NCBI RefSeq assembly: GCF_035594125.1
Contig: NC_087173.1
Coordinates: 16,359,255 to 16,423,254 of the forward strand
DNA: 64,000 nucleotides
DNA from: Scylla paramamosain
Lineage: Eukaryota; Arthropoda; Malacostraca; Decapoda; Portunidae
Reading direction: 5' to 3'
Under the pieces are notes generated by a model. That model was not told the DNA's origin. It did not search any database and worked only from the letters and a program-made list of their open reading frames with translations. Position numbers and translations under genes: made by a program. Shown here piece by piece: positions 3,768 through 57,822 of this stretch (within the stretch, counting starts at the first letter, position 1; every line of letters begins with the position of its first letter).

Positions 3768-4019
3768 CTCAGTTTCAGCCTGTGAGTACCGTCCTTCACT
3801 GAGGTAACCTTGCAAGGTCTTCAAGAGGGAGCCAAGGAAGGCTTGCTCAACAGCAACCAATCTAGAGCACACCTTCCACCAGGAGAAGGCAATGATGGGA
3901 GGAGTCAGGTTGAGTGTGATGGCATAGTGCTCCAGAAGACAGACCTTAGTGCTACTCAGGGTGCCTTTCCAAGGAGGAGAGAAGCTCACCATTCCCTGAA
4001 GCACAAAGCTGAACTCAGG
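3768..4019 (-). CDS. BAIAP3/Munc13-4-family gene, exon after the C2 domain
   Basis: An 84-codon exon in phase 0 at both ends, bounded by an AG acceptor (4021-4020) and a GT donor (3767-3766, GAG|GTACAT). It begins PEFSFVLQGMVSF and contains WKGTLS, LLEHYAI and LLKTLQGYLSEG. In the BAIAP3/Munc13-4 family the segment after the first C2 domain has a W-x-G-x-L-S motif, then a helix ending in HA/HYA-type residues, then an aromatic-rich helix. This exon follows that order. It begins the helical MUN-type region that binds the SNARE fusion machinery. About 25-40 residues expected between the exon at 10135 and this one were not found, so a further small exon probably lies between them. The gene continues leftward out of the window. 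Confidence 0.72.
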
Positions 4020-5514
4020 CTAATCATCAACTTCACTTCCTAAAGTATGAAGAACATTATGTCATACATTCAACAAACACCATTTGTTTAAAGGCTATAA
4101 TGAACTCTATAGGCAGTGTGTGTCACCATCGAGATAAATTTAAACAATGATATAATTAAACATTAGTTTTTGGTCATCTGTTCAGGGCAAACATGGTCTT
4201 TGGTTTGCAGCTGGCAACCATAGAAAGAAATTTTAAGTTTTTTTGTTTTCAAAATTTCAGGAGAAAGATTATGGAGTTGCATCAGAAATCAGTCTTTACA
4301 GTGAGAAGACAAACTCTTGCCTTAGAGACACAAATGATGCAAGGGGAATGGAAGTTAACTCTACAGCAAAAATAAGAAGAGGACTGTTGTAACTGTAGTG
4401 TATGATGATTCCAATAGTGAAACCAATACTGTCAATCTATTCACTTCCCATAACACTCGCATCACAACATACATTACTCACCTCACTGTCAATATTACTC
4501 CCATCACTGACAGAGTTGTTGCTGACAATGCAGCTCCTGCTACTTTTAAGAACATTACTATTATTTTTTGTACTTTTACTAGTACTTCTGAGGCTGCGAA
4601 AGGTCCGCTCAGTCCTGGTTCTTCCTCGCCGAAAGTTGCTGAAGGTGCTGAGATAACCAAGGCGGTGCTGGATCACTCGGCTCAGGAAGTTTTCAAACCA
4701 ATGGGGACCAATCAAATTCAACTGAAAATTAATTAAAAAACATATGAAATACAAAATATTCATTGTAAAAGAAAACGAAGATTGTTATATTTTTTTTTCA
4801 CAAGTGGATTACAAGTCCATTTTAACATCTTCTATATGGTTCACTTCAATGCCAGACCATTTCAGTGCCAAGACTTCAGTGGTAAATCATTCAGCACCAC
4901 TGTTTCATCTACAATAACTGGTTTGCTTCAAGTCTGATTAACTCAATTTCATTTCCACATTGATAAGCAATTCTTAATATTCTCTCATCTGTTTTTTTCT
5001 ATTTCAGTCTTCTGTGCCGAGACTCATGTCCAGGTGAAAACTTAAAAAAATATTCACTCTATCCTTTTTGGCCTGACTTAAGAACAATGATGAAGTTTTT
5101 ACTAGTTTTTGCTTATTTGTATGTAGTACTACTGCTCTGGAGTGCTGCCAGGATGATCAGTGTGTGTTGCAGAGGGTGCCAGAGAAACTGCTTGCTAACA
5201 GGAGGCTGTATATTAATAAAAGTACTGGTGATGCAGAGAACCCAGCCCACCGGCATCCAGCCCAAGGCAAGGCACTGACTGACTGGGACAACAAGGAGTG
5301 CAGGAGAATGACAGAGGAGGGCATCACATGTGGGGTGAAAGACACAATGAGGGACTGTGTCCAAAGACAATGATATTGGTACAAGTTCCATACAGTGGAT
5401 GCAACATTCCTTTATTGCCTCACTGCCACCTGTTTGCCCCTTCATCATCATAACAATTGGTATTAAGTTCTCATAACATACACTGGTTCACACACATTCC
5501 ATCTTTATGTGGCA
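4020..5514. other. Intron sequence without an identified gene
   Basis: Contains an open plus-strand frame at 4398-4736 (Ser/Thr-rich, ending KPMGTNQIQLKIN) and another at about 5164-5373 (includes KALTDWDNKECRRMTEEG). Neither has a recognisable motif or convincing splice context. They may be remnants of mobile elements. I do not call them genes. Confidence 0.4.
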
Positions 5515-8500
5515 AACTTAACTTCCAAAGTGGACCACATTCTGACTCTCTTCCCTTTTGCAGAGATCTCCATTCTTGGAGACTTTAATGTTCACCAACA
5601 CCTTTGGCTTTCTTCTCCTTTCACTGACCATCCTGGTGAACTAGCCCTCAACTCTGCTATCCTCCATGACCTAAAGCAATTGGTGCAACACCCTACTCGT
5701 GTTCCTGACCGTCTTGGAGATACGCCCAACATTCTTGACCTTTTCCTGACCTCTAATCCTTCTGCTTATGCTGTCACCCTCTCCTCTCCATTGGGCTCCT
5801 CCAATCACAATCTCATATCTGTATAACTAAGGAGATAGTGGAACAAGAGATAGATAGGCTAAAAAGTTCAAGACACCAAGACCAGATGAAATATATCCCA
5901 AAGTACTTAAGGAATGCAAAGAGGTCATTAGTGAGCTGTTAGTTTCTGTCTTTAGGAAATCACTTGAGTCAAGTGAAGTACCAGTAATGTGGAGGCAGGC
6001 TAATGTAGTACCCATCTTTAAGAAAGGAGAATAAACTTTACCATCTAATTATAGACCTGTCAGCTTAACTTCAGTTGTAAGTAAAATATTGGAGTCAATA
6101 ATAGCAAAGAACATTAGGGAGCACTTAGATAAATATAACTTGATAAATCAGTCACAGCATGGCTTCATGAAGGGGAAGTCTTGCCTGACGAACTTGTTAA
6201 ATTTTTATAGTAAAGTGTACGAGGCAGTAGATAATGGTGATAGTTATGACATCTTATATCTGGACTTTAGTAAAGCTTTTGACAAGATACCCCATCAGAG
6301 GCTCCTGAGAAAGATTAGGGCACAAAAGATTGATGGGAAGGTGTTAGGCTGGATAAAGTCATGGCTAAGCGACAGGCAACAAAGAGTTGTAATAAACAGC
6401 TCTAAATCCAAGTGGGGTCATGTAATTAGTGGGATACCACCGGGATCAGTATTAGAGCCATTGTTGTTTTTAACATATATCAATGACTTGGATAGCAGAA
6501 TTAGTAATGATGTTAATAAATTTACGGATGACATAAAGGTAGATTAATTAGGTCAGAATGCCATCACCTTGCAGGCAGATTTAGATAGGATGAATGAATG
6601 GACGGACAGATGGCAAATGCAGTTTAATATCAACAAATCCAAAGTACTTAGCATAGGTACAGGAAACCCACACAGTAGGTACACAATAAACAACAAAACT
6701 CAGGTCAGGGTACGAAGAAGATTTAGAAGTCATAGTTAGCTTTGAACTCCTTCTTGGAAAACAATGCATAGAAGCCAGAAACAGGGCAAATAGGGTATTA
6801 GGATTCATTTTTAGGAGTGTTACAAGTAGAAGGCCCGAAGTAATATCAAAGTTATATTTGGCACTGGTCAGACCTCATCTAGACTATGCTGTGCAGTTCT
6901 GGTCCCCACATTACAGGAAAGATATAGGTCTATTAGAATCAATACAGAGGAGAATGACTAAAAGGATATAAGGGATGAAGAGTATTTCTTATGAGACGAG
7001 ACTGAAGCTGTTAAATTTACATTCTTTTGAGAGACGTAGGTTAAGAGGGGACCTGATAGAAGTCTTTAAGTGGTATAAGGGTTATAACAAGGGGGATGTA
7101 AGCAAAATTCTTAGGATCAGTAACCAGGATAGAACAAGAAATAATGGGTTCAAGCTTGAAAAATTTAGGTTTAAGAAAGAGATAGGAAGAAACTAGTTCT
7201 CAAATAGAGTGGTAGATGAGTGGAACAGACTCAGTAATCATGTTCTTAGTGCTAACACACTAGGGGATTTTAAGAGAAGATTAGATGGGTTTATGGATGG
7301 GGATGATGGGTGGAAATAGGTAGGTATATTTCATACAGGGAATGCCACATGTAAGCCTGGTTGCTTCTTGCAGCTTCCCTTATTTCTTATGTTCTTATGT
7401 TCTTATGTATCTTGTCCTATCACTCCAATCCCTCCTCAGGATCCCCCTAAGCTAAGGTGCCTCTGGCATTTTACCTCTGATAATTGGGAGGACCTGAGGA
7501 GGTATTTTGCTGATTTTCCTTGGAATGACTACTGCTTCCATATCAGAGACCAGTCTTTGTGTGCCAAGCACATAACAGAGGTGATAGTGTCTGGCATGGA
7601 GGCGTACATTCCTCACTCTTTTTCTCGACCTAAACCTTCCAAACCTTGGTTTAACATAGCTTGTTCTTGTGCTATACATGATAGAGAGGTGGCCCACAAA
7701 AGGCACTTAAGCCTTCCATCACCAGAATCTCATGCACTTTATATTTCTGCCCGGAACCATGCCAAGTCTGTTCTCCAACTAGCCAAAAACTCCTTCATTA
7801 ATAGAAAGTATCAAAATCTTTCAAAATCTAACTCCCCTCATGACTTCTAGCATCCAGCCAAAAATATTTCTAATAACTTTCCTTCTTCTTTCCCTTCTTT
7901 ATTTCAACCAGATGGCACCACTGCTATCACATCCATCTCTGAAGTTGGACTCTTCTCTCAAACCTTTGCTAAAAACTCTACCTTGGACAATTCAGGGCTT
8001 GTTCCTCCCTATCCTCCACCCTCTGACTGCTTCATGCTACTTATTAAAATTCTTTGCAATGATGTTTTCCATGCTCTCACTGGCCTAAACACTCATAAAG
8101 CTTACAGAACTGATGGGATCCTTCCTATTGTTCTCCAAAACTGTGCCTCTGTGCTTGCACCTTGCCCAGTCAAACTCTTTCAACTCTGTCTATCAACATC
8201 TACCTTTCCTTCTTGCTGGAAGTTTGCCTACATTCAGCCTGTTCCTATAAAGTGTGACCATTCTAATCCATCAAACTACCGTCCTATTGCTTTAATTTCA
8301 TGCCTGTCTAAAGTTTTTGAATCTACCCTCAACAGGAAGATTCTTGAACATCTATCACTTCTATCTGATCGCCAGTATGGGTTCCATCAAGGCTGCTCTA
8401 CTGGAGATCTGGCTTTCCTTACTGAGTCTTCGTCATCGCCTTTTAGAGATTTTGGTGAAACTTTTGCTGTTGCCTTGGATGCATCAAAAGCTTTTGATAC

Positions 8501-57239: not shown

Positions 57240-57304
57240 CCAGAGAGAGAGAGAGAGAGAGAGAGAGAGAGAGAGAGAGAGAGAGAGAGAGAGAGAGAGA
57301 GAGA
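57240..57304. repeat. (AG)n microsatellite
   Basis: About 31 AG units followed by a short (CA)n near 57321. Confidence 0.96.
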
Positions 57305-57537
57305 AATACTCTTCTCCCTTACACACACACACACACACACGTGCAAGTATACAAACACAAAATTAACACATACATACCGTACGCATGTACATACATAATT
57401 TACAATAAAAGTTCATAAAACCGGGAAATACGAACGTTTGGAAAATAAATTCGTACTATCAATAATAACAATCACACACATCACCATCATCACAGATTAT
57501 CATCACCATCATCATCAAGCAACTACCTGTTACTCAC

Positions 57538-57822
57538 CATTCCAAGGTTTTTCGGAGAGAATTGACACAAACTGGCGCGAGATCCGACACAATCCTCTTC
57601 CTCATCTTCATTTTCCTCCTCCCTTGTCGAATTTATTTTGTGAGTCCTCTTCCTCCTCCTAGAACTCGCTATGGTGCGAGGATGAGGAACAGAGGAGGGA
57701 ATCATCATGGTAATGGAGGTGCTGTATTCTTCTCTGGAGGTAAGAAGTGTTAATGCATCTGCTCCTTCTTCTATCTCACCCAGTACAGGATTTAGGGGCT
57801 TGCTCACAGAAGACTGCCCCAT
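57538..57822 (-). CDS. Candidate first coding exon of the BAIAP3-type gene
   Basis: ATG at 57822-57820, 95 codons, ending at donor ATG|GTGAGT in phase 0. It encodes MGQSSVSKPLNPVLGEIEEG, a Ser/Thr-rich stretch, a basic patch SSRRRKRTHK and an acidic run REEENEDEEE. MGQSS at the start could be N-myristoylated. It lies upstream of the phase-0 exon at 41857 on the same strand, with no other gene known between. It could instead belong to a separate gene. No family similarity recognised in the exon itself. Confidence 0.5.

What the first reader, a model, noticed from the sequence alone, without database searches (positions are those of the whole stretch)
3768..57822. Hidden host gene: BAIAP3/Munc13-4-type exons spread over more than 50 kb of transposons
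Seven exons, none longer than 252 nt and one only 45 nt, keep intact frames and matching phases (0-0, 0-1, 1-2, 2-2, 2-0, 0-0, 0-0) across a complete C2 domain plus flanking segments. Automatic gene finders would probably miss the small exons and annotate only the retrotransposon ORFs. The gene predicts a regulated-exocytosis priming factor.
Basis: partly seen in the sequence, partly recalled or inferred. Interest (0 to 1): 0.75.

Follow-up and report, generated by a model that had tools for sequence, protein, structure and literature searches.

The report
Already annotated crab vesicle-fusion gene (BAIAP3-like)
The scattered small exons are real and belong to a large but ordinary mud-crab gene for a vesicle-fusion helper protein that NCBI already lists, although its two calcium-sensor domains look as if they can no longer bind calcium.

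Summary
In detail: all five claimed junctions are exact and the exons form one gene. The window is C23:16359255-16423254 of a 1.21 Gb assembly. NCBI's [quoted passage not shown], on a contig as long as C23, maps here without a mismatch. The full model has 23 coding exons, 1187 aa, 147.7 kb, 2.4% coding; nine exons lie in the window.

So the gene is not hidden.

The family assignment holds: my early joined model matches UNC13D/Munc13-4 at E=1.1e-30 through C2A, the MUN region and C2B. Named relatives are called BAIAP3-like or unc-13 homolog 4B-like. Pfam MUN does not score on it.

One point modifies "regulated exocytosis": in nine aligned crustacean-type proteins each C2 domain keeps at most one of five calcium-ligand aspartates, so a calcium-independent priming or tethering protein is more likely. 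Otherwise ordinary.

The parts
57538..57822 (-). coding exon 1 (285 nt): MGQSSVSKP..., phase out 0; in-frame TAG 12 nt upstream of the ATG
   Evidence: similar MGQ N-termini in P0003, P0005, P0006, P0008, P0009, P0010. NCBI isoform X3 starts at the last codon (ATG) of this exon
   Evidence: P0002 exact mapping; 55% identical fragment P0001
36811..36877 (-). coding exon 3 (67 nt), start of C2A, phase 0-1
24248..24356 (-). coding exon 4 (109 nt), C2A, phase 1-2
16739..16783 (-). coding exon 5, 45-nt microexon within C2A, phase 2-2; the corresponding 15 residues are absent from the models P0008 and P0010
10660..10789 (-). coding exon 6 (130 nt), C2A, phase 2-0
10135..10284 (-). coding exon 7 (150 nt), end of C2A, phase 0-0
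   Evidence: top candidate of an exon scan, exact in P0002
3768..3995 (-). coding exon 9 (228 nt), start of the MUN-like region (WKGTLSS...), phase 0-0
   Evidence: (weak alone, E=0.024)
27182..35035 (+). context, not part of the gene product: LTR retrotransposon in intron 3, antisense; LTRs 27182-27717 and 34506-35035, 98.3% identical; long open frame 28003-34092. Described only
49412..53711 (+). context: internally deleted relative of the same element in intron 1 (98.5% identical over 3979 bp)

Best explanation
The exons are the 5' part of one 23-exon protein-coding gene of the mud crab Scylla paramamosain, already annotated by NCBI as BAI1-associated protein 3-like. The protein has the C2A - MUN-like - C2B layout of Munc13-4/BAIAP3. 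By family analogy it tethers and primes secretory organelles by helping SNARE assembly (inferred, not shown). Shown here: gene structure, exact match to the database protein, similarity to UNC13D through both C2 domains and the middle region. Inferred: its action, and that it works largely without calcium, because both C2 domains have lost nearly all calcium-ligand aspartates. The big introns are filled with transposons.
For: P0002, named by NCBI as BAI1-associated protein 3-like isoform X3 [Scylla paramamosain], sits on a contig of 22,072,799 bases, the length of C23, and maps exactly in GT-AG exons. The joined 23-exon frame has one terminal stop and contains P0002 as its suffix; all 22 introns are GT-AG. 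UNC13D (9la9) is the best solved-structure match of the early joined model, E=1.1e-30, three collinear stretches. Eight relatives are 38.5-64.9% identical to P0002.
Against: No transcript reads could be examined; 'isoform X3' is a predicted model by its name. Pfam MUN (PF06292) does not score on this protein; of seven proteins scanned it scores in one, P0008. The C2A peptide alone is slightly nearer to PKC alpha C2 (6.8e-08) than to UNC13D (1.5e-07). Exon 1 is not in P0002 beyond its last codon. Function is by family only.
Confidence: 0.95

Rival explanations
1. A decayed pseudogene: old exons surviving as chance open frames among transposons.
For: A second, partial copy of the 3' exons at C23:15.41-15.43 Mb carries a stop codon in the C2B exon.
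Against: The copy in and beside the window has 23 exons, one continuous frame and GT-AG at all 22 introns. Between the two copies the four exons compared (early boundaries) differ at 9 of 646 positions (1.4%), against 3.1-3.6% in the three long alignments around them, gaps and the exons themselves included; this suggests constraint but is no formal test.
Confidence: 0.03
2. Exons of two or more different genes chained together by eye.
For: Introns of up to 30 kb and transposons between exons.
Against: One database protein covers exons 2-23 contiguously and exactly; relatives show the same order.
Confidence: 0.01
3. A calcium-regulated priming factor, just like human Munc13-4.
For: Same domain layout; human Munc13-4 is calcium-regulated through both C2 domains (PMC6080937, passages seen; PMC3849599, passages seen).
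Against: The residues aligned with D127, D133 and D941 of human Munc13-4 are not Asp in 9 of 9 proteins; D947 is kept in 5 of 9, this crab included.
Confidence: 0.2

Closest known systems
NCBI model: BAI1-associated protein 3-like isoform X3, Scylla paramamosain (P0002)
   Different: X3 starts at the last codon of exon 1; the model here adds the 94 preceding residues, as in several relatives
BAIAP3-like (Eriocheir) and unc-13 homolog 4B-like (Homarus, Procambarus, Cherax, Palaemon) proteins
   Same: 1078-1229 aa, 41-65% identical to P0002 over the aligned length
   Different: P0008 and P0010 lack the 15 residues of the 45-nt exon; P0008 scores on Pfam MUN, the crab protein does not
Human Munc13-4 (UNC13D) and BAIAP3
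   Same: C2A, MUN-like region and C2B in the same order; about 22% identity over 958 columns to the recalled human sequences
   Different: Calcium-ligand aspartates nearly all lost from both C2 domains; shorter C2A without an inserted loop of the human proteins

Membership tests
Munc13-4/BAIAP3 (unc-13-4) family | N-terminal C2 domain, MUN-type region, C-terminal C2 domain, no C1 domain | tested here: met
   Two C2 stretches and no other Pfam family at E<=1, so no C1 hit; collinear match to UNC13D through the middle region
Munc13-4/BAIAP3 (unc-13-4) family | Sequence similarity to known members across most of the length | tested here: met
   9la9 UNC13D E=1.1e-30; blastp against recalled human UNC13D 4e-27 and BAIAP3 2e-24, E-values for that two-sequence comparison
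Munc13-4/BAIAP3 (unc-13-4) family | Pfam MUN domain PF06292 | tested here: inconclusive
   No hit in the early model or in P0002; above cut-off in relative P0008, 26.5 vs 24.2 bits, 1 of 7 scanned; none of the 37 genome-wide MUN matches is on C23
Munc13-4 as calcium sensor | Calcium-ligand aspartates in C2A and C2B loops | tested here: not met
   C2A 0-1 of 5 and C2B 0-1 of 5 kept in each of 9 proteins; the crab keeps one in each
Munc13-4/BAIAP3 (unc-13-4) family | SNARE binding and vesicle priming activity | not testable with these tools
   Needs protein biochemistry or knock-down
Hidden (unannotated) gene | Absent from public annotation | tested here: not met

The most novel reading that the evidence does not exclude
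In malacostracan crustaceans this Munc13-4/BAIAP3 branch has lost calcium coordination in both C2 domains, making it a calcium-uncoupled priming or tethering factor. A frame-preserving 45-nt cassette exon could further remodel C2A, and a conserved MGQ N-terminus may have taken on another role.
Probability: 0.5. Interest if true: 0.4.

Novelty: already known. Interest (0 to 1): 0.15.

Why it matters
As a gene find it matters little: NCBI already lists it. The one useful lead is that the calcium-sensing residues on which human Munc13-4 depends are missing throughout the sampled relatives, so the calcium dependence of this priming family could be tested against a natural calcium-blind relative.

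Tried and rejected
Pfam MUN as proof of the family: it does not score here, so the case rests on similarity to UNC13D and on the database name. My own exon model before the database protein was found differs from P0002 in one acceptor (exon 12) and in boundaries of exons 18 and 19, and lacked exon 8 and the last two exons; a scan had ranked exon 8 first but I did not take it up until P0002 showed it. I first noted the C19 MUN gene as a second BAIAP3-type gene; its C2 sequences look like the central and last C2 domains of Munc13-1-type unc-13 (recalled, not searched), so I withdrew that. The nearer paralogue found is at C4:33.82 Mb. N-myristoylation of the MGQ start was considered; the consensus as I recall it is not met here, so it is not claimed. 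Literature: seven searches. No listed title was about this crab gene; two searches listed only 8 of 56 and 6 of 22 papers. I make no claim that the calcium-ligand loss is unpublished.

Full report
Check of the observation. Joining the six exons gives a 251-residue open peptide with one complete Pfam C2 domain, PF00168, E=2.4e-17, profile positions 2-104 of 104.

Where it is. The window is G000:C23:16359255-16423254 in a 1.21 Gb assembly of 234 contigs; C23 is 22,072,799 bases long. A full-length protein search, in which only the 7991 candidates sharing most words were scored, returned P0002, [quoted passage not shown], on a contig of 22,072,799 bases, a cluster of 13 sequences. I take this to be the same scaffold, because the lengths are equal and the whole 1093-residue protein is reproduced by the locus: residues 2-1093 from exons 2-23 and the first Met from the last codon of exon 1.

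Gene structure. With the ATG-bearing exon 57822-57538 the model has 23 coding exons, 3564 nt, 1187 residues and a single terminal stop; all 22 introns are GT-AG; the span is 147,706 bp, 2.4% of it coding. Nine exons (1491 nt) are in the window; the other 14 lie downstream, down to C23:16269371. The last exon is only 21 nt including the stop. Exon 1 is supported by similar MGQ N-termini in six relatives, P0003, P0005, P0006, P0008, P0009 and P0010; P0004 has MGQ from residue 16, and P0007 has no MGQ start.

Corrections to the finding. Exon 2 starts at 41857, not at 41872: P0002 reads M-EEQQ while the genomic codon before EEQQ is AAG, so the Met must come from another exon. Exon 1 is 285 nt, so the statement that no exon exceeds 252 nt fails once it is included. 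The reported phases are right.

Family. My early joined model (1100 aa, before correction by P0002) matches UNC13D (9la9) at E=1.1e-30 with three collinear stretches through C2A, the middle region and C2B; the nine other listed chains match the first C2 domain region only, by their best stretch. Against this, the C2A peptide alone is slightly nearer to PKC alpha C2 (6.8e-08) than to UNC13D (1.5e-07). Pfam finds two C2 stretches and nothing else at E<=1. The MUN profile does not score on P0002; it does on the lobster relative P0008 (26.5 bits, cut-off 24.2), the only one of seven proteins scanned; P0004 and P0005 were not in that scan. Eight relatives besides P0002 were found, 38.5-64.9% identical to it. 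Seven of the eight bear species names (Eriocheir, Petrolisthes, Palaemon, Meganyctiphanes, Homarus, Procambarus, Cherax), all malacostracans by recall; P0004 is unnamed. Six of the nine proteins, P0002 included, are named BAIAP3-like or unc-13 homolog 4B-like; P0005 is called hypothetical, P0007 an unnamed product. P0011, P0012 (tricalbins) and P0013 (a record with MUN) among the ten hits were left out of the alignment as distant, and P0001 as a one-exon fragment.

Mechanism. In human Munc13-4 calcium acts on SNARE binding through C2A and on membrane binding through C2B, and D127N/D133N or D941N/D947N mutants failed to rescue calcium-stimulated exosome release (PMC6080937, passages seen; PMC3849599, passages seen). 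That the MUN region acts on SNAREs is by family analogy; the 2013 review says that this was not yet demonstrated for Munc13-4. In the nine proteins aligned here the matching residues are T or A at 127, H or N at 133, gap (7) or K/N at 941, and D (5) or N (4) at 947; over five aligned ligand positions each C2 domain keeps at most one Asp in any protein, and this crab keeps one in each, at 208 and 947. Position 208 is Glu in six others. If D1012 is counted too, three proteins (P0004, P0007, P0009) reach two in C2B. The alignment at 206, 941 and 1012 has gaps; 127, 133, 241, 1005 and 1007 are ungapped and lack Asp in 9 of 9. Which loop-3 residues are ligands is recalled from C2 domains in general. 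Hence I favour calcium-independent tethering or priming; this is inference. [quoted passage not shown]

The 45-nt exon. It is symmetric (phase 2-2). The models P0008 (lobster) and P0010 (Cherax) lack exactly these 15 residues, while P0009 (Procambarus) has them. It may be a cassette exon, or the gene predictor may have dropped it.

Copies in the genome. With P0002 as query, 43 exon-level matches were listed: this locus; a run on C70 within residues 102-672 (with a second short run, residues 401-532, on the other strand of C70); a run at C23:15413330-15432455 within residues 854-1088; and distant relatives on C4. The run at C23:15.41 Mb is about 96-97% identical to this locus over three long alignments and has a TGG-to-TGA stop in the C2B exon. 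It may be a partial duplication or a misplaced alternative haplotype. The C4 region at 33.82 Mb holds a compact relative, 21-50% identical to P0002 by segment, from the end of C2A to C2B within about 6 kb; where human proteins have DDFLG it has TSHLLG; whether it is an intact gene was not tested.

Verdict. A correct and skilful reading of a real gene; the gene is already annotated and of a known kind. Interest is low apart from the calcium-ligand loss.

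Noticed in passing
window 27182-35035 and 49412-53711: Two closely related LTR retrotransposon copies (98.5% identical over 3979 bp) sit antisense in introns 3 and 1; the first has a 2029-codon open frame and 98.3% identical LTRs, so it is probably young; the second is internally deleted. It looks like the BEL/Pao type (recalled, not searched).
   Followed up: partly
C23:15413330-15432455 (L029, L033) and C70:451649-525650: Inverted, about 96-97% identical copy of the gene's 3' exons about 0.9 Mb away, with a stop codon in the C2B exon; together with the run on C70 it could be a second, split copy of the gene or an alternative haplotype.
   Followed up: partly
C6:35.37-35.45 Mb and contigs C76, C122, C95, C92, C127, C63, C17: A MUN-domain gene (perhaps CAPS or unc-13; not tested) appears on C6, and nearly equal-scoring matches appear on six or seven other contigs: redundant haplotype contigs or a real amplification.
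   Followed up: no
window 16739-16783: The 45-nt frame-preserving exon of C2A is absent from two of nine aligned proteins, so it may be an alternatively spliced cassette.
   Followed up: partly
L040 (C4:33820900-33828400): A relative of the same subfamily packs its matches from C2A end to C2B into about 6 kb, whereas the window gene spans 148 kb. Another weak match lies at C4:31414457.
   Followed up: partly
window 57538-57822: The N-terminal MGQ start is shared by six of the eight relatives, a possible extra localisation signal of unknown role.
   Followed up: no
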